Position numbers and translations under genes: made by a program. Shown piece by piece: positions 8,937 through 40,590 of a stretch of DNA of 41,871 bases. This DNA is from Syntrophaceae bacterium (GTDB lineage Bacteria; Desulfobacterota; Syntrophia; Syntrophales; UBA2185): the NCBI GenBank assembly GCA_003153775.1, contig PMBI01000042.1:33029-74899 (forward strand). Direction: 5' to 3'. The stretch's first letter is position 1, and the number at the start of each line of letters is the position of its first letter. The notes under the pieces were generated by a model. The model was not told the DNA's origin. It searched no databases and saw only the letters and a list, made by a program, of their open reading frames with translations.

Positions 8937-9767
8937 ATGATAGATTTCTTTAAAATGAGCGGCAGCGGCAACGATTTTATCCTGATCGATAACAGGGAGC
9001 AATCCCTGGCCGTCGGAAACATCGCACAATTCGTGAGAGCCGTCTGCGAACGTAAGGTATCGGTGGGCGCAGACGGGTTGATCATTATCGAAGATTCGGA
9101 GCGCGCTGATTTCCGGTGGCGGTTTTTCAATGCCGACGGGAGTGAAGTGGATATGTGCGGAAACGGAGGGAGGTGTGCCGCCCGTTTCGCCTGTATTAAA
9201 GGGATCGCAAAGGAAAAAATGTCCTTCGAGACCGGAGCAGGCATCATCGACGCCGAGGTCAAAGGAGATGTAGTAAAACTGAGATTAACAGACCCGCAGG
9301 CCATGAAGGCCAACATATCAGTTATGATCGACGGGAAACCGCTTGAAGTCAGCTTCATCAACACGGGCGTACCCCATGCCGTTTGTTTCGTCCAAGGTCT
9401 CGACAGGTATGATGTATTTAACACGGGCCGGAAGATTCGCCGCCACAGGGAATTCCAGCCTGAGGGCACGAACGCGAATTTCATGGAAGTGATAGACAGG
9501 CACACTATCAGAATCAGGACGTATGAGAGAGGCGTAGAAGACGAAACCTTAGCCTGCGGCACCGGCGCCGTGGCATCTGCCCTGATATCGTCCTCGCAGG
9601 GACTGGTGGAATCGCCGGTTGATGCGAGGGTGAAAAGCGGAGAGACATTGAAGATATATTTCCACAAAAAGGACCGGGCTTTTCAGGATATTTATCTTGA
9701 AGGAAAAGCCAATGTGGTTTATGAAGGGCGCATCTGGGACGAGGCTTACAAGCGCCCTCAGACTTAG
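8937..9767 (+). CDS. dapF: Diaminopimelate epimerase
   Basis: A 276-residue DapF, which interconverts LL- and meso-diaminopimelate for lysine and peptidoglycan. The N-terminal FFKMSGSGNDFILID block is typical. The two catalytic cysteines are in MCGNGGRC and ACGTGAVA, and the substrate loop EGTNANFMEV is present. ATG 8937 is chosen over an earlier in-frame GTG (8901) because it begins the conserved MIDFFKMSG block and has GAGG 9 nt upstream. The next gene, dapL, supplies its substrate, so the two form a functional unit. Confidence 0.95.
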   Translation: MIDFFKMSGSGNDFILIDNREQSLAVGNIAQFVRAVCERKVSVGADGLIIIEDSERADFRWRFFNADGSEVDMCGNGGRCAARFACIKGIAKEKMSFETGAGIIDAEVKGDVVKLRLTDPQAMKANISVMIDGKPLEVSFINTGVPHAVCFVQGLDRYDVFNTGRKIRRHREFQPEGTNANFMEVIDRHTIRIRTYERGVEDETLACGTGAVASALISSSQGLVESPVDARVKSGETLKIYFHKKDRAFQDIYLEGKANVVYEGRIWDEAYKRPQT

Positions 9768-9793
9768 ACAGAAAAAACCGGAGGTGTTTTGTT

Positions 9794-10960
9794 TTGCAGA
9801 TTGCCGACCGACTGAAAAAGATTCCGCCTTACCTCTTTGTGGAGCTGAGAAAAAAAATCAACAAGGCGAAGGCTGAGGGCATTGACGTCATCAGTCTCGC
9901 CATCGGAGATCCCGTGGAACCAACGCCGGATTCGATCATCGATGAACTCTGCAGGAGAGCGCGGGACCCGGAAAATCACCGGTACCCTACGGATGAGGAA
10001 AGAGGCATGCTCGCTTTCCGGCAGGAGATTGCCCGGTGGTACAACACGAGATACGGGGTATCTCTCGATCCGGGAATGGAAATCCTTGGTCTCATCGGCT
10101 CTAAAGAAGGCTGCCATCACTTCGTTCTGGGCTGCATAAATCCCGGCGATACCGTGCTGATGACGGATCCTGGATATCCGGCCTACCGTGCCAGCATCCT
10201 GATGGGCGGCGGCGTTCCCTACAACGTGCCGATTCTGGCGGAGAACAGATATCTCCCCGTATTCGAAGACATCCCGACGGATGTCGCAAAGAAGGCGCGG
10301 GGGATATTCCTCAACTACCCCAATAATCCCACCGGCGCCTGCGCAACCAGGGAGTTCTTCGATCGCCTGGTGGAATTTGCCAGGCAGTTTGACATTGCCG
10401 TCTGCTATGACAATCCCTACGGTGAAATCCTCTTTGGCGGACAGGAACGCCTGAGTTTTCTCATGGCCGGCGGGGCCAAGGACGTGGGCGTTGAGTTAAA
10501 TTCCCTTTCCAAACTCTTTAATATGACTGGCTGGCGGATCGGAATGGCCGCAGGTAACGTCGACATCATTTCCGCCATGAGCAAGGTTAAAGAAAATACC
10601 GATTCCGGCATCTTTAATCCTATCCAGTATGCGGGTCTCCATGCACTGAAACATGAAGCAAAGAATATTGACCACATGCTCAATATCTACGGACGGCGAC
10701 GTGAACTGGTGCTCGAAACACTGAGGCGCATCGGGATAGTCTTTGATGCCCCCAAAGGAACATTCTACTTATGGGTGCCCGTGCCCCGGGGTATGAAATC
10801 CCTCGAATTTACAAACCTCCTCTTTGATAAGGCGGCGATCGTCGTTGCGGCGGGCACGGCATATGGCCAGTACGGTGAAGGTTATATCAGGATAGCCCTT
10901 ACCGTGCCGGATGCGAGGCTCAAGGAGGCGATGGAGCGGATCGAAAAGGCGTTGTCCTGA
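9794..10960 (+). CDS. dapL: LL-diaminopimelate aminotransferase
   Basis: A 388-residue fold-type I PLP aminotransferase. The PLP lysine is in NSLSKLFNMTGWRIG; other family blocks are GDPVEPTP, YPTDEERG, FLNYPNNPTGA and the C-terminal GEGYIRIALT. DapL converts tetrahydrodipicolinate and glutamate directly to LL-diaminopimelate, bypassing the acylated intermediates of the DapC/DapE route. It is common in Desulfobacterota, Chloroflexi and methanogens. The start is TTG 9794, set by GGAGGTG at 9780-9786. Adjacency to dapF supports DapL over a general alanine/aspartate aminotransferase. Confidence 0.9.
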   Translation: MQIADRLKKIPPYLFVELRKKINKAKAEGIDVISLAIGDPVEPTPDSIIDELCRRARDPENHRYPTDEERGMLAFRQEIARWYNTRYGVSLDPGMEILGLIGSKEGCHHFVLGCINPGDTVLMTDPGYPAYRASILMGGGVPYNVPILAENRYLPVFEDIPTDVAKKARGIFLNYPNNPTGACATREFFDRLVEFARQFDIAVCYDNPYGEILFGGQERLSFLMAGGAKDVGVELNSLSKLFNMTGWRIGMAAGNVDIISAMSKVKENTDSGIFNPIQYAGLHALKHEAKNIDHMLNIYGRRRELVLETLRRIGIVFDAPKGTFYLWVPVPRGMKSLEFTNLLFDKAAIVVAAGTAYGQYGEGYIRIALTVPDARLKEAMERIEKALS

Positions 10961-11057: not shown

Positions 11058-12170
11058 TCAAAAATGTCTCGCGACGAATTTCCTTATGATCCTTCCGGGA
11101 CATGTCTCCCTCGCATGGAGGGCGCCATAGGGACAAACCTCAATGCAGCAGAAGCAGCGGATGCACCGGTCATAATCAAAGGAGAGCGTCTTTTCACGCA
11201 AAGATATCGCCCCCGCAGGACAGATTTTCCGGCACTCCGCGCACAATTGGCAGTTCACGTTATCGGAAACTGGCCTCTGGAGAAGGTGCCTTCTGATAAA
11301 TCCGTGAAACCTTCGCGGCCCGTACATGAGCGGGCTGATAAGGGGAAGCCTGAAATCGCGAACCATCGGGAGGTCGCCATCAATCTCGATATCAGCTTCC
11401 ATGATGCCCATATCTCTTGCAACCCTCAGAGTCGGCAGTCTATCCGCGTCCAACCCCAGCATCCTGCAAACCGTGCCGTCTACGGCAAAGGCGTCACGGC
11501 TGCCCAGCAAGACGCCCAGCTCTCGCGGCCTGCCGCCTTTCCCCGGACCTTCGCCTTCCATAGCCAGAATCCCATCGAGAATTGTAAATGATGGCCTGAT
11601 TCTCTGATAAATGAGGACGAGGAGCTTTGCAAACATGGTGCGGTTGATGCCTGTCCGCATGTGCCACTCCGCTTTTCTGTAACCGACAATGCAGCCGAAC
11701 ATGTTCTTCACGCCGAGGGTCAGCAGCATCTGACTGTGCGTCTTGAGTTTGGGAAGGTTGATAATCAAGTCTGCGTTAAGGGCGTCCTCGGCCATCTCAA
11801 TTTGATTAAACGGTTCGCCGATATCGGTTCTCAGGAAGTTTTCAAATGCCCTGCAGGTGACGTCAAGCCCCGCAAGCGCACCCCTTATGCCGCTATCCTT
11901 CATTATTTTTTCAAAAGAACCTATGGCGGGGCTATCCGAAACCTGCGGGCGGGCGCCCTTTTGCAGGACATACTCTACTGCAACTTTGACAATCGTGGGA
12001 TGTGTCAGCACAGCATCCCCCGGCGACGCCGGTGAGAGCAGGTTCGGTTTGATGAGGACACGGTTACCCCTTCCGATCAGTCCACCTCCGATTGCGTCCA
12101 TGATCTCGAAGAACAGGGCTTTGACCACGTCATAATCATAGGTGGATTTTCTCAGTATTACTTTCGTCAC
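11058..12170 (-). CDS. DUF362 protein with C-terminal 2[4Fe-4S] ferredoxin domain
   Basis: A 370-residue protein with an N-terminal DUF362 domain (motifs VLIKPNLLSP, INLPKLKTHSQ and GVKNMFGCIVGYRKAEWH) and, in about the last 75 residues, two ferredoxin motifs, CQLCAECRKICP and CIRCFCCIEVCP. DUF362 proteins are widespread in anaerobes and are thought to have redox roles, but their reactions are largely undefined. I assign no function. The start is GTG 12170 with only a weak upstream GAGAAG. It stands alone on the minus strand, convergent with dapL and divergent from the YkuD gene. Confidence 0.85.
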   Translation of the reverse strand: MTKVILRKSTYDYDVVKALFFEIMDAIGGGLIGRGNRVLIKPNLLSPASPGDAVLTHPTIVKVAVEYVLQKGARPQVSDSPAIGSFEKIMKDSGIRGALAGLDVTCRAFENFLRTDIGEPFNQIEMAEDALNADLIINLPKLKTHSQMLLTLGVKNMFGCIVGYRKAEWHMRTGINRTMFAKLLVLIYQRIRPSFTILDGILAMEGEGPGKGGRPRELGVLLGSRDAFAVDGTVCRMLGLDADRLPTLRVARDMGIMEADIEIDGDLPMVRDFRLPLISPLMYGPRRFHGFIRRHLLQRPVSDNVNCQLCAECRKICPAGAISLREKTLSFDYDRCIRCFCCIEVCPYGALHARETCPGRIIRKFVARHF

Positions 12171-12340: not shown

Positions 12341-13561
12341 ATGAAAGATTTCCATATTAATAGATATTCATCGGGACCTGTTTATTTAAAGGTCGGCGTC
12401 GTCGTAATCGTACTCTTGCTTCTTTCAAACCTGCTTTTAATATACCTGTTTGTCAAAGAAAGAAGTAACAATAAGAATCTCATCGGTCTTGTCGATAGAG
12501 CAGGCAAGGACTTTAATCAAATCCATGAATCATTGAAGCAGAAGGATATGCAAAAGGCCTTCCGGTATCTGACGGAGGCGCAAAAACAGGTGGTGGCGAT
12601 GCTGCCGCCCGCGCCCGTGCCGGCAGAAAAGGCGGTGACGGAGACAAAAGAGCAGCCGCCCGCGCAGCCGACACAGACTAAAGCAGCGGTCACGACTGTC
12701 GCAAGTACACCCGTCTCTCCCCAGGATGCGCCCTATACCTTTGTCTTTGCCGATACGGGCGAATACCTTCTCATCTGTGAAAAAGATACAAAAATTCTCT
12801 ACATCTTCCGTTTTTCAGACGGCAGGTTCTCCCTCGTAAAGCAGTACCCGTGTGTCATCGGGGCGAATAATCATGGAAAGATGAGGGAAGGAGACTTTGC
12901 AACTCCCGAAGGGGTTTACTTCTTCTTAAGATTTACACCGGGCAAGTCACTCGCCGAAAACTATGGTTATGGGGCCTTTGTTTTAAATTATCCAAATTTC
13001 CTCGACCGGAAGGAAAGAAAAGACGGCGGAGGCATCTGGCTGCACGGCCACAGCGCGGGCAAAGTATTGGGAGCGGATGTACCGGATACAAAAGGCTGCA
13101 TCGTTGTGAGCAATGATGCATTGAGAGAAATGAGCGGTTACCTGAAGGCGAACGGTACTCCCATCGCAATTGTCAACAAGCTCCAGTTTACGAAACTTGA
13201 AAGTCAGAAGGAATCGGCAAAGGAACTGAGGAACTTTATCAATTCCTGGAGGCTCTCTTGGGAGAGCATCAATACGAAAAAATATTTGAGCTTCTATTCC
13301 CCGACATTTGTTAACAGCGAGGGGATGAGCTATAACGCCTTCAAGCATCATAAGGAAAAGACCAACAAGAGCAAGAAATTCATTCGCGTAAAAGTTGACA
13401 ATCTCGCGATCCTTATGCCACCGGAATATGGGGGTAATGTCGCAGTCGCAAGATTTCAGCAAAGATACGCTTCCAACAATTTCAAGAGCGACAGCAAGAA
13501 AATATTCTACCTGAAAAAAGGGCAAGCCGGATGGCAAATCATAGGCGAATCTTCATATTAA
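12341..13561 (+). CDS. YkuD-family peptidoglycan carboxypeptidase/transpeptidase, Pgp2/Csd6-like
   Basis: About 406 residues. In order: an N-terminal membrane anchor (residues about 15-38, very hydrophobic); a Pro/Gln/Thr-rich linker; a YkuD domain with the catalytic His in IWLHGHSAG and the Cys in DTKGCIVVSND; and a C-terminal domain of about 115 residues (LRNFINSWRLSWESIN to the end) that looks NTF2-like. YkuD plus NTF2-like is the arrangement of Campylobacter Pgp2 and Helicobacter Csd6, which trim peptidoglycan tetrapeptides (LD-carboxypeptidase) and set helical cell shape. An ordinary L,D-transpeptidase is the alternative. It overlaps the next gene by 31 bp. ATG 12341 has no clear ribosome binding site; a TTG at 12326 is in frame. 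Confidence 0.82.
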   Translation: MKDFHINRYSSGPVYLKVGVVVIVLLLLSNLLLIYLFVKERSNNKNLIGLVDRAGKDFNQIHESLKQKDMQKAFRYLTEAQKQVVAMLPPAPVPAEKAVTETKEQPPAQPTQTKAAVTTVASTPVSPQDAPYTFVFADTGEYLLICEKDTKILYIFRFSDGRFSLVKQYPCVIGANNHGKMREGDFATPEGVYFFLRFTPGKSLAENYGYGAFVLNYPNFLDRKERKDGGGIWLHGHSAGKVLGADVPDTKGCIVVSNDALREMSGYLKANGTPIAIVNKLQFTKLESQKESAKELRNFINSWRLSWESINTKKYLSFYSPTFVNSEGMSYNAFKHHKEKTNKSKKFIRVKVDNLAILMPPEYGGNVAVARFQQRYASNNFKSDSKKIFYLKKGQAGWQIIGESSY

Positions 13562-14454
13562 TATGCATCACAATTGTCTGTTTTTTTATTGCAACCAATT
13601 CTCTTACAGTTAAGCGGGATGTTTCAGCGAAGCCGGAAAAACCCTCTTGTCAGCTGCAGAAGTTTTTTGCCGGCACAAACCAGGAGGTGGCCGTATATTT
13701 TATTTCCGGAGAAGAGAAAGGCCCCACCCTGCTTATCATCGCCGGAATCCACGGCGATGAATCCGGCGGTTATCTGACGGCAGAAAGATATACAGACATC
13801 AAGGTAAAGAAAGGGACACTGATTGTAGTGCCGCGTCTGAACTTACCCGCCGTAGTGAAGGGAAAGCGGCAGGGTCTGAGCGGCGACATGAATCGCCTTT
13901 TTCACCTCCCTGAAGACACCCATTCCACTCAGGATACGAAAGTTGTGAACCTCGCCAAGTCGCTTATAAAACGCGCCGACTATGTCCTTAATCTCCATCA
14001 AGGTGAAGGGTTCTATTCCCCCAAGTGGATTTCCCACAAGAGAAATCCTTCCAGATGGGGGCAGTGCAACGTCATCGACGCTCCCATCTTCGATCTGCCT
14101 AATGGAGATAAACTTGAACTCGCGAGCTTTGCCAAGAGGATAGCATCCAGTTCGAATTCCAAAATCAAAGATAAAAAATATCATTTTCAGGTCAACAACA
14201 CCAACACGGCGAGCAATAAATCCGTTCACAAGGAGCAGAGAAGATCGCTCACATACTATGCCCTTTATCAGCAGCACAAAACGTCCTTGGCGCTGGAATC
14301 AACGAAGAACTGCACAGTGCCTCAGGCCGTCGGATTTTTAACAATCGCCGTCAATTCAGTGATCGACGCGGTGGGGATTCGAGCAGAGAATCTTCCTTCC
14401 GCAGATCCTGTCAAGATCAGCAAAGAGTTTGCCGGCAGAAAAATTAAAACGTGA
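13531..14454 (+). CDS. M99-type peptidoglycan carboxypeptidase, Pgp1/Csd4-like
   Basis: A 307-residue exported zinc carboxypeptidase. The N-terminus is a signal peptide or anchor (RRIFILICITIVCFFIA). Zinc/catalytic blocks are IAGIHGDESGGYL (His and Glu ligands), GDMNRLFH, and YVLNLHQGEGFY with the third ligand His, followed by RNPSRWGQCNVID. This block order matches my recollection of the M99/Csd4/Pgp1 DL-carboxypeptidases that cut tripeptide to dipeptide stems, rather than succinylglutamate desuccinylases. It begins 31 bp inside the YkuD gene, with AAAAAAGGG about 8 nt upstream of ATG 13531, so the two are likely translationally coupled. Confidence 0.8.
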   Translation: MANHRRIFILICITIVCFFIATNSLTVKRDVSAKPEKPSCQLQKFFAGTNQEVAVYFISGEEKGPTLLIIAGIHGDESGGYLTAERYTDIKVKKGTLIVVPRLNLPAVVKGKRQGLSGDMNRLFHLPEDTHSTQDTKVVNLAKSLIKRADYVLNLHQGEGFYSPKWISHKRNPSRWGQCNVIDAPIFDLPNGDKLELASFAKRIASSSNSKIKDKKYHFQVNNTNTASNKSVHKEQRRSLTYYALYQQHKTSLALESTKNCTVPQAVGFLTIAVNSVIDAVGIRAENLPSADPVKISKEFAGRKIKT

Positions 14455-14738: not shown

Positions 14739-16094
14739 ATGAAGAATGAGCTGTCTCACGATGAGTTGATGCTTAAGGTCAAGGAACTCGAAAAAATAAT
14801 CTCCGACCATAGGCGGCTTGAAGAGGTTTATCGTTCGGTAGTAGAGTCTACGAGCGATTCCATATATATGGTGGACAAAGAATATCGATATCTCTTCATG
14901 AACAATCAGCACTTGTCCAGGCTTGGTATGCCGGCTGAACAGGTCATAGGTAAACTCTACAGTGAGTTTCACTCTCCCGAGCAGGATAAAATATTTGCAG
15001 AAGCGGTTAACAAGGTGTTTTCAACCGGCAAGTCCATTCAGCACGAGCACAAGAGCCAGAGGGACATGAGATATTTTCTCCGGACGTTCAGTCCTGTAAG
15101 AGATCGCGGCCCCAATGAAGGGATAACATGTGTCGCCATCATTTCCACGGACATAACCGAGCATAAGCTGGCTGAAGAGGCGATCAGGGAAAGCGAGCAA
15201 AAATATAGGACGATTATTGAAAACATTGAAGACGGCTATCACGAGCTTGATTTCTCCGGCAATATCGTTTTCTTTAATGACGCCCTCTTAAGAATGCTGG
15301 GATATTCCCGTGATGAATTTGCAAAGATGAATTACCGAGATATCACTGATGAGGAAACGTCCCGTCAGGTATTGCAGGTCTGCGACGAAGTTTACAAAAC
15401 AGGGAAACCATCCAGAGGCATTGAGATAGAGGTAATGAAGAAAGATGGAACCACGAGGGTGGTTGAGATATCCGTGTCGCTGATCATGGATGCAAGAGGT
15501 CACGAAGCAGGGTTCCGAAATGTAATTCGCGACGTAACTGAACGCAAGAAGTCAGAAGAAACCATCAGACGATTGGCTTATCATGACCCCCTTACGGGAT
15601 TACCCAACCGTCTCTTGTTCACGGACCGTCTTAACATGGCAATAACCAGGGCCAAGCGTAACAAGCAATACCTGGCCGTGATGATGCTCGACCTGGATTA
15701 CTTCAAGGACATCAATGACACACTGGGCCATCACATGGGAGATAAGCTGTTACAAGCTGTGGGCTCTCGTCTGACGGAACTCTTGCGAAAGGGTGACACT
15801 ATAGCCCGCATGGGCGGTGATGAGTTTCTGGTTCTATTGCCGGAAATCACTAATGTGGGAGTTACGACAACGATAGCGCAGAAAATCGTCGAATCGTTCC
15901 AAAGTCCCTTTATAATTGATGATAGTAAACTTCGTATTACGACAAGCATCGGAATTGCAATTTACCCGGACGTTTCGGATGACGTTGAGACCCTCATCAA
16001 GCACGCGGATATTGCAATGTATCGCGCTAAAGGATCTGGACGGAACAACTATCAATTGTTTGCTCCGGAAATGCTCGTTAAAGCCTCGTCGTAA
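14739..16094 (+). CDS. PAS-PAS-GGDEF diguanylate cyclase
   Basis: A 451-residue soluble signalling protein. It has a short N-terminal coiled coil (residues 1-30), PAS domain 1 (about 30-142, ending TDITEHKLAEEAI), PAS domain 2 (about 152-270, ending RDVTERKKSEETI), then a GGDEF domain starting YHDPLTGLPNR. The active-site GGDEF (359-363) is intact, so it should make cyclic-di-GMP from two GTP. The product-inhibition I-site RxxD (Arg350, Asp353) is also present five residues before GGDEF. There is no EAL domain and no membrane segment, so the input signal is cytoplasmic. AAAGGA precedes the ATG. It appears to be monocistronic. Confidence 0.93.
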   Translation: MKNELSHDELMLKVKELEKIISDHRRLEEVYRSVVESTSDSIYMVDKEYRYLFMNNQHLSRLGMPAEQVIGKLYSEFHSPEQDKIFAEAVNKVFSTGKSIQHEHKSQRDMRYFLRTFSPVRDRGPNEGITCVAIISTDITEHKLAEEAIRESEQKYRTIIENIEDGYHELDFSGNIVFFNDALLRMLGYSRDEFAKMNYRDITDEETSRQVLQVCDEVYKTGKPSRGIEIEVMKKDGTTRVVEISVSLIMDARGHEAGFRNVIRDVTERKKSEETIRRLAYHDPLTGLPNRLLFTDRLNMAITRAKRNKQYLAVMMLDLDYFKDINDTLGHHMGDKLLQAVGSRLTELLRKGDTIARMGGDEFLVLLPEITNVGVTTTIAQKIVESFQSPFIIDDSKLRITTSIGIAIYPDVSDDVETLIKHADIAMYRAKGSGRNNYQLFAPEMLVKASS

Positions 16095-40086: not shown

Positions 40087-40590
40087 TTATTCCTCCTTAT
40101 CCGGCGCTTTCTCCTGCGCCTTCTCCTTCACTTTCTTCTTCTCCGGCTTTGGCTCCTTCTCTGATCTTGGCTCCTTCTCTGGTTTTGGCTCCTTCTCCGG
40201 TTTTGGCTCCTTTTCCGGCTTCGGCTCTTTTTCCGGCTTCGGCTCCTGCCCCTTTTCTTTTTCCTTCTTTTTCTTCTTTTCCTTCCCCTCTCCCGGAGCT
40301 TCCTTCGGTGACTTCCCTTTCTTTGCTGCCCGCTCTTTCGGCATGGCAGCGGCAGCCGCTTTTTCCGCCTTCATCTTTGCCAGCTCTTCCGTCCTTCTTT
40401 CATTGGCTGCGATCGCTTTCAGTCTGTCATTTATGGCCCTGATATTCGCCCGCAATTTCTTAACGAGCGTATCTTTATCGACCCTTGGGGATTCGAACCC
40501 CTTTTTAGACAGTAGGGACAGGCGTTCCTCCAGCCCCCGTTCGAAAGACGCCTTTTGTCTCCCTTGCGCCTCCTTATTTTTCGATCCCAT
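40087..40590 (-). CDS. Highly charged protein with EPKPEK hexapeptide repeats
   Basis: 167 residues, no signal peptide. The N-terminal half is helical and probably coiled-coil (ERGLEERLSLLSKKG, RANIRAINDRLKAIAANERR). A short Ala-rich stretch is followed by a Lys/Glu/Pro-rich tail with six tandem EPKPEK-type repeats (residues 116-151, one variant EPRSEK) and a final KEKAQEKAPDKEE. I recognise no family. The tail should be disordered and extended; such tails act as spacers or bind nucleic acid or polyanions, but nothing specific can be claimed. GGAGGAG lies 6 nt before the ATG. Confidence 0.75.
   Translation of the reverse strand: MGSKNKEAQGRQKASFERGLEERLSLLSKKGFESPRVDKDTLVKKLRANIRAINDRLKAIAANERRTEELAKMKAEKAAAAAMPKERAAKKGKSPKEAPGEGKEKKKKKEKEKGQEPKPEKEPKPEKEPKPEKEPKPEKEPRSEKEPKPEKKKVKEKAQEKAPDKEE
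40138..40245 (-). repeat. Six tandem 18-bp repeats encoding EPKPEK
   Basis: Imperfect 18-bp units (sense consensus GAGCCGAAGCCGGAAAAG-like), six copies in frame. The central units are most alike, consistent with slippage expansion. Copy number is likely to vary between strains. Confidence 0.8.

What the first reader, a model, noticed from the sequence alone, without database searches (positions are those of the whole stretch)
12341..14454. Overlapping Pgp2/Csd6-like and Pgp1/Csd4-like genes: a cell-shape module outside Campylobacterota
The first protein has the YkuD plus NTF2-like architecture of Csd6/Pgp2. The second has the M99-type blocks GIHGDESGG, GDMNRLF and NLHQGEGFY. In Helicobacter and Campylobacter these two enzymes trim peptidoglycan stems and produce helical form, but as far as I recall they are encoded apart. 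Here they overlap by 31 bp, implying coupled synthesis and perhaps a complex.
Basis: partly seen in the sequence, partly recalled or inferred. Interest (0 to 1): 0.65.

Follow-up and report, generated by a model that had tools for sequence, protein, structure and literature searches.

The report
Overlapping peptidoglycan-trimming gene pair (Csd6-like, M99)
A Syntrophales bacterium carries two overlapping genes for enzymes that probably shorten cell-wall peptides one after the other; this gene partnership was already known, but the second enzyme is a stripped-down, His-liganded version and the 31-base overlap is identical in the 22 genomes found with it.

Summary
ORF1 (12341-13561) is a membrane-anchored YkuD + NTF2-like protein of the Csd6/Pgp2/Bd1075 type. 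ORF2 (13531-14454) is an M99 peptidase, not an aspartoacylase. They overlap by exactly 31 nt. Profiles, AlphaFold models and active-site mapping agree. The genome belongs to Syntrophales (Desulfobacterota). The headline is not new: Pgp1 homologues in deltaproteobacteria were reported in 2012, pgp1-pgp2 adjacency outside Campylobacter in 2014, and a Csd6-type curvature enzyme in Bdellovibrio in 2022. (1) ORF2 is a reduced M99: it lacks Csd4's C-terminal domains and has His where Csd4 homologues are described as having a strictly conserved Gln. (2) The 31-nt overlap is identical in 22 genomes, and the start ATG is kept by an A at a wobble position where A is otherwise 6-31%, so the start is under selection, consistent with translational coupling. 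(3) In other Desulfobacterota the pair is usually Csd6 - TM/coiled-coil protein - long Gln-type M99, often followed by a bactofilin; I found no report of that cluster. Most likely the pair trims tetra- to tri- to dipeptides in the periplasm and influences cell curvature. Activity, a physical complex and shape are untested.

The parts
12341..13561 (+). csd6/pgp2-like gene, 406 aa: N-terminal TM and coiled helix, flexible Pro-rich linker, YkuD (LD-carboxypeptidase-type) domain, NTF2-like domain
12398..12454 (+). predicted membrane anchor of ORF1 (residues 20-38), inside a long predicted helix 14-66
   Evidence: hydropathy maximum 3.03 at residue 20; AlphaFold helix 14-66
12725..13195 (+). YkuD catalytic domain (residues about 129-285); His235 at 13043-13045, Gly236, Cys253 at 13097-13099; Val255 where LD-transpeptidases mostly have Arg
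   Evidence: residue mapping; Arg/Ala/Val note from PMC8938487
13196..13558 (+). NTF2-like domain (residues 286-406) with Pgp2 pocket residues kept: Y315, F323, K338, K387
13517..13522 (+). AAAGGG, Shine-Dalgarno-like, inside ORF1, 8 nt before the ORF2 ATG; AAAGGG or AAAGGA in most short-form loci (also encodes Lys-Gly)
   Evidence: sequence; comparison
13531..13561 (+). 31-nt overlap of ORF1 3' end and ORF2 5' end (ORF2 in the -1 frame)
   Evidence: identical length in 22 genomes
13531..14454 (+). short-form M99 carboxypeptidase gene, 307 aa, single catalytic domain with N-terminal TM/signal-anchor (residues 7-25)
13687..14382 (+). M99 catalytic domain (residues 53-284): metal ligands His74 (13750-13752), Glu77 (13759-13761), His156 (13996-13998); general base Glu256 (14296-14298); Arg113 and Arg122 equivalent to Csd4 Arg86 and Arg94
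   Evidence: alignments; Csd4 residue roles PMC4220969

Best explanation
The two genes form a compact, probably translationally coupled unit for two inner-membrane-anchored periplasmic carboxypeptidases that act in series. ORF1, an LD-carboxypeptidase of the Csd6/Pgp2/Bd1075 type, binds peptidoglycan through its NTF2 pocket and removes the terminal D-Ala of tetrapeptide stems, giving tripeptides. ORF2, an M99 DL-carboxypeptidase, removes meso-DAP from tripeptides, giving dipeptides that can no longer be cross-linked. Local trimming of this kind would let the cell bend its wall. Shown here: family membership, folds, conserved catalytic and pocket residues, constant gene order, an exact 31-nt overlap, and selection on the internal start codon. 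Inferred from homologues: the two reactions and their order. Inferred only: control of curvature, and any physical contact between the two enzymes.
For: Domain profiles. Nearest solved structures are Bd1075, Csd6 and Pgp2 for ORF1 (Z 28.5, 27.2, 25.4) and Csd4 for ORF2 (Z about 33 against 21.5 for aspartoacylase-like 3cdx). Pgp2 His157/Gly158/Cys174, Glu107/Tyr130/Trp155 and pocket Y233/F242/K257/K307 are all present. Csd4 Glu49, Arg86, Arg94, His128 and Glu222 equivalents are invariant across 39 M99 homologues. Every M99-positive genome in the order sample (32 of 149) has the Cds6_C domain nearby on the same contig and strand. The 31-nt overlap is identical in 22 genomes; A is kept at the wobble base that makes the ATG in 21 of 21 loci although third-position A is 0.06-0.31. 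Published: the Pgp2 product is the Pgp1 substrate (PMC3961634). The genome also has a bactofilin gene beside an M23 peptidase gene, the csd1-ccmA arrangement.
Against: ORF2 has His at the metal-ligand position where Csd4 homologues are described as having a strictly conserved Gln. The title of Chan et al. 2015 says helical shape requires that Gln (seen only as a reference), so activity on the same substrate may differ. ORF2 lacks Csd4's second and third domains. No bactofilin or scaffold gene lies next to the pair in this genome. Cell shape is unknown. The wobble test treats related genomes as independent.
Confidence: 0.62

Rival explanations
1. Peptidoglycan turnover and DAP salvage rather than shape: the pair strips stem peptides during wall turnover or as part of DAP balance, with no specific role in curvature.
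For: ORF2-type enzymes release meso-DAP. The DAP genes dapF and an LL-DAP-aminotransferase-like gene lie just upstream (8937-10960) and one or both lie upstream of the pair in five relatives (L032, L033, L035, L036, L038) and in the more distant L046; in L035 and L036 no gene of the window set lies between. The shape proteins bactofilin and X are absent downstream or between in short-form loci.
Against: A periplasmic anchored location and the conserved NTF2 peptidoglycan-binding pocket resemble the shape enzymes. A dedicated LD-/DL- pair is known so far from shape systems. DAP gene proximity was seen only in part of the short-form clade.
Confidence: 0.22
2. The overlap is only genome compaction: it is inherited and carries no functional coupling.
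For: Short overlaps are common in bacteria; a fixed overlap length is hard to change because indels hit two genes; the sample is one related group.
Against: The wobble base forming the ATG is A in 21 of 21 loci, also in GC-rich genes where third-position A is 6-8%, and also where the amino acid changed (Glu, Lys, Arg). This shows selection on the start position, not necessarily on coupling.
Confidence: 0.25
3. ORF2 acts on a different substrate (an aspartoacylase/deacylase-like or changed-specificity M99 enzyme), so the pair is not the Pgp2-Pgp1 pathway.
For: HxxE metal motif as in M14 and AstE/AspA enzymes; AstE_AspA Pfam model scores 52.8 bits over 107 positions; C-terminal domains absent.
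Against: M99 score is more than twice as high (120.7); structure Z 33 for Csd4 against 21.5; Csd4 substrate arginines and the Trp148 equivalent kept; a partner expected to make tripeptide is always encoded beside it.
Confidence: 0.1
4. ORF1 cleaves a protein-peptidoglycan link, like E. coli DpaA, instead of trimming stems.
For: Weak NCBIfam LdtF/DpaA/YafK match, 25 bits against a cut-off of 365; DpaA is structurally related (8ikr, Z 13.9).
Against: Far better matches to Csd6, Pgp2 and Bd1075 over the whole periplasmic part, including the NTF2 domain.
Confidence: 0.04

Closest known systems
Pgp2 (C. jejuni) / Csd6 (H. pylori) / Bd1075 (B. bacteriovorus) LD-carboxypeptidases
   Same: YkuD + NTF2-like architecture, catalytic Cys-His-Gly, non-Arg at Cys+2, NTF2 pocket residues; 24-28% identity over the whole periplasmic part
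   Different: ORF1 has a TM anchor followed by a long helix and a Pro-rich linker in place of Csd6's helical dimerisation domain; Val at Cys+2 as in Bd1075, not Ala as in Csd6/Pgp2
Csd4 (H. pylori) / Pgp1 (C. jejuni) DL-carboxypeptidases, family M99
   Same: Catalytic domain fold (Z about 33), Glu/His metal ligands, general-base Glu, substrate arginines, about 30% identity
   Different: His instead of Gln as first metal ligand; single domain with TM anchor, no beta-barrel or Ig-like domains; translated from inside the partner gene
Published adjacent pgp1-pgp2 pairs (Nitratiruptor, Nautilia, Desulfococcus oleovorans, Persephonella; PMC3961634)
   Same: The two genes are neighbours
   Different: Overlap not described in the passage read; in Desulfobacterota of the long type a third gene usually lies between the pair
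csd1/csd2-ccmA type M23-bactofilin operons (PMC10945521)
   Same: Bactofilin genetically linked to a peptidoglycan hydrolase; present once in this genome at another locus
   Different: There the enzyme is an M23 endopeptidase; in Desulfobacterota long-form clusters the bactofilin follows an M99 carboxypeptidase

Membership tests
Csd6/Pgp2 LD-carboxypeptidase family (ORF1) | YkuD domain with catalytic Cys, His and Gly | tested here: met
   PF03734 above cut-off; H235, G236, C253 align with Pgp2 H157, G158, C174
Csd6/Pgp2 LD-carboxypeptidase family (ORF1) | C-terminal NTF2-like domain with conserved pocket residues | tested here: met
   PF24125 87.5 bits; AlphaFold and fold search; Y315, F323, K338, K387
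Csd6/Pgp2 LD-carboxypeptidase family (ORF1) | No Arg two residues after the catalytic Cys (Ala or Val instead) | tested here: met
   V255; V/A/S/T in all 37 aligned homologues; rule from PMC8938487
Csd6/Pgp2 LD-carboxypeptidase family (ORF1) | N-terminal helical dimerisation domain (Csd6; absent in Bd1075) | tested here: inconclusive
   Predicted long helix 14-66 including a TM segment and helix 70-85; dimerisation not tested
Csd6/Pgp2 LD-carboxypeptidase family (ORF1) | LD-carboxypeptidase activity | not testable with these tools
   needs enzyme assay
Peptidase family M99 (PF17033) (ORF2) | Match to the M99 catalytic profile above the curated cut-off, better than related families | tested here: met
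   120.7 bits, cut-off 27; AstE_AspA 52.8
Csd4/Pgp1 orthologue proper (ORF2) | QxxE...H metal site with Gln | tested here: not met
   HxxE (GIHGDE) in ORF2 and in 24 of the 25 members of its clade; 54 of 56 other loci have Gln
Csd4/Pgp1 orthologue proper (ORF2) | Central beta-barrel and C-terminal Ig-like domains after the catalytic domain | tested here: not met
   ORF2 ends at the catalytic domain; Csd4 domains from PMC4220969
Csd4/Pgp1 orthologue proper (ORF2) | General base Glu222 and substrate Arg86/Arg94 | tested here: met
   E256, R113, R122 invariant in 39 sequences
Csd4/Pgp1 orthologue proper (ORF2) | DL-carboxypeptidase activity on muramyl tripeptide | not testable with these tools
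   needs enzyme assay
Aspartoacylase / succinylglutamate desuccinylase (ORF2) | Whole catalytic profile matched, best hit of the protein | tested here: not met
   Only 107 of 192 positions, less than half the M99 score; structure Z 21.5 against 33

The most novel reading that the evidence does not exclude
Syntrophales carry a natural minimal version of the helical-shape enzyme pair in which the M99 enzyme works with an ordinary His metal ligand and no accessory domains. In other Desulfobacterota the same pair sits with a TM/coiled-coil protein and often a bactofilin: a one-operon shape module linking a cytoplasmic filament to periplasmic stem trimming.
Probability: 0.35. Interest if true: 0.6.

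Novelty: new variant of a known kind. Interest (0 to 1): 0.42.

Why it matters
The pair shows that sequential stem trimming by LD- then DL-carboxypeptidases is a long-lived gene partnership, far beyond Helicobacter and Campylobacter. The His-ligand, single-domain M99 clade is a natural test of the published claim that Csd4 needs its atypical Gln. The long-form csd6 - TM/coiled-coil - M99 - bactofilin cluster would make it testable, from a single operon, how a bactofilin is connected to carboxypeptidases in the periplasm, which is unclear in H. pylori, where the genes are scattered.

Tried and rejected
Aspartoacylase assignment of ORF2: rejected. Programmed frameshift fusing the two proteins at AAAAAAGGG (ORF2 is in the -1 frame and open over that site): considered and rejected by argument only. 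The run is not in a canonical slippery phase, and a fusion would place ORF2's TM helix in mid-protein and put the M99 domain in the cytoplasm. AstE/AspA sequences from near relatives as an outgroup: the search returned mostly the M99 genes themselves and one gene that looks MpaA-like, so the M99 tree was left without a proper outgroup; HpCsd4 sits on a long branch, and I do not claim whether His or Gln is ancestral. Chan et al. 2015 (Csd4 Gln ligand): not held, cited by title only. Literature searches for an M99/Csd4-bactofilin operon outside Campylobacterota found none, which is weak evidence of absence. Promoter and terminator scan: not informative. First-pass reading of minus-strand loci was wrong because they are not reoriented; redone. 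My notebook entry of 20/20 overlaps was a miscount: the order sample gives 19 of 19, and with three further named genomes (L042, L043, L052) 22 distinct genomes.

Full report
OBSERVATION. ORF1 runs from ATG 12341 to TAA 13561 (406 aa) and ORF2 from ATG 13531 to TGA 14454 (307 aa), both on +, overlapping by 31 nt including the stop. A TTG five codons further upstream (12326) is a possible alternative start of ORF1. The pair stands alone as a unit: a DUF362/ferredoxin gene is divergent upstream (11058-12170, -) and a PAS-GGDEF gene follows after a 284-bp gap (14739-16094).

ORF1. Pfam finds YkuD (residues 144-277, 47.9 bits) and Cds6_C, the NTF2-like domain of Csd6 (296-403, 87.5 bits). By sequence the best solved relatives are Bd1075 of Bdellovibrio (4e-38), Csd6 and Pgp2. 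AlphaFold (mean pLDDT 87) gives a long N-terminal helix with a TM stretch, a disordered linker at 95-119, then YkuD and NTF2 domains. Structure comparison gives Z 28.5 (Bd1075), 27.2 (Csd6) and 25.4 (Pgp2) over about 260-270 residues. The Pgp2 residues E107, Y130, W155, H157, G158 and C174 and the NTF2 pocket residues Y233, F242, K257 and K307 are all present; position Cys+2 is Val, as in Bd1075, not the Arg of most transpeptidases.

ORF2. M99 scores 120.7 bits, AstE_AspA 52.8 bits over part of the model. The best solved relative is Csd4; with the family profile Csd4 scores 206 bits and aspartoacylase-like 3cdx 36. AlphaFold (pLDDT 92) matches Csd4 at Z about 33, rmsd 1.8, 241 residues, and 3cdx at Z 21.5. 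Csd4's Glu49, His128, Glu222, Arg86 and Arg94 correspond to E77, H156, E256, R113 and R122, invariant in 39 sequences. Two features differ from Csd4: the first metal ligand is His74 instead of Gln46, and the protein ends after the catalytic domain.

WHERE IT OCCURS. Nearest relatives are Syntrophaceae/Syntrophales MAGs at 89-94% identity. In a sample of 149 genomes of the order, 32 carry M99 and every one of them has Cds6_C within about 1 kb on the same contig and strand; 72 of 149 carry Cds6_C. In this sample the M99 gene never occurs without the partner, but the partner often occurs alone. A scan of named genomes returned at least 563 M99 relatives; the best 80 were kept.

TWO FORMS. Short form (window): Csd6-like gene plus an M99 of about 300-330 aa with HGDE. 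Long form: Csd6-like gene (with two NTF2 domains in some genomes), usually a protein of about 240-330 aa with one TM segment, a coiled coil and no Pfam assignment above cut-off ('X'), then an M99 of about 480-670 aa with QGDE/QGNE and C-terminal extensions, often followed by a bactofilin. In the 56 less similar loci (L056-L111) a Csd6-like gene is present in 42, X in 45, a downstream bactofilin in 26, and all four genes in 21; 54 of 56 have the Gln (several loci are cut by contig ends, so these are lower bounds). On the M99 tree the window's clade (25 sequences, support 99/95) has His in 24, with one Gln member nested within it (L044); the tree has no proper outgroup, so the direction of change is not claimed.

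THE OVERLAP. All 19 short-form loci of the order sample that could be read show exactly 31 nt. With three further named genomes (L042, L043, L052) that makes 22 distinct genomes in at least five families. Exceptions in the same M99 clade are L044, L045 and L054. The ORF2 ATG is made of the last base of the codon before a conserved Trp codon plus the TG of that TGG. That last base is A in 21 of 21 loci, although third-position A in the same genes is 0.06-0.31, and it stays A where the amino acid is Glu, Lys or Arg rather than Gly. Treating loci as independent gives about 10^-15; because they are related this number is not a real probability, but the GC-rich loci alone make neutrality unlikely. 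In loci without the overlap the codon before the last Trp ends in A in 14 of 45, though that position is not strictly homologous. An AAAGGG/AAAGGA stretch lies 8 nt before the ATG in most loci; it also encodes conserved Lys-Gly, so it is only suggestive. I conclude that the internal start is real and selected; coupling of translation follows as a likely but untested consequence.

MECHANISM. Published work shows that Pgp2 cuts tetra- to tripeptides and supplies the substrate of Pgp1 (PMC3961634), that Pgp1 cuts monomeric tri- to dipeptides (PMC3310789), that the Pgp2 NTF2 pocket binds peptidoglycan and is needed for helical shape (PMC8038945), and that Bd1075 is placed on the outer curve by its NTF2 domain (PMC8938487). 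With all these residues conserved, the same two steps in series are the best explanation here. Both enzymes carry their own N-terminal membrane anchor, so they are expected on the periplasmic face of the inner membrane (hydropathy; inference). The same genome has three bactofilins, one beside an M23 peptidase as in csd1-ccmA. The DAP genes just upstream are kept near the pair in several relatives and leave room for a turnover/salvage role as the main rival.

NOVELTY. Distribution outside Campylobacterota and neighbouring placement are published, so the headline is not new. Apparently new are the His-type single-domain M99 clade, contrary to the statement that the Gln motif is strictly conserved in Csd4 homologues; the invariant overlap; and the X-bactofilin-linked long form. 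Literature searches found no account of the last, but the held library is incomplete.

Noticed in passing
L006 517-3521; also L061, L063, L067, L070, L075, L076, L078, L081, L086, L090-L092, L095, L096, L100, L101, L103, L105, L106, L109, L110: Cluster of Csd6-like gene, TM/coiled-coil protein of unknown family, long Gln-type M99 and bactofilin in Desulfobacterota; looks like a one-operon shape module.
   Followed up: partly
own genome G000:C79:74189-74473 and 74536-74820 (minus strand; L123, L126): Bactofilin gene directly beside an M23 peptidase gene, the csd1-ccmA arrangement; two further bactofilins elsewhere in the genome.
   Followed up: no
8937-10960; L035, L036, L046: dapF and an LL-diaminopimelate-aminotransferase-like gene lie upstream of the pair; in L035 and L036 they lie upstream of the csd6-like gene without the divergent DUF362 gene found in the window.
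   Followed up: partly
genomes G014, G076, G082, G110 (family f15): Some genomes of the order carry four to six Cds6_C copies and no M99, so the NTF2-type protein has expanded without its partner.
   Followed up: no
L099, L104: M99 proteins with a one-residue deletion at the metal motif (GMH-NE, GIH-NE instead of GIQGDE); activity doubtful or metal site rearranged.
   Followed up: no
L121: MpaA-like M14 carboxypeptidase (by eye) in a relative, picked up by the AstE_AspA model.
   Followed up: no
40087-40590 (minus strand): Predicted protein with a low-complexity KPEKEP-type repeat, very rich in Lys and Glu.
   Followed up: no
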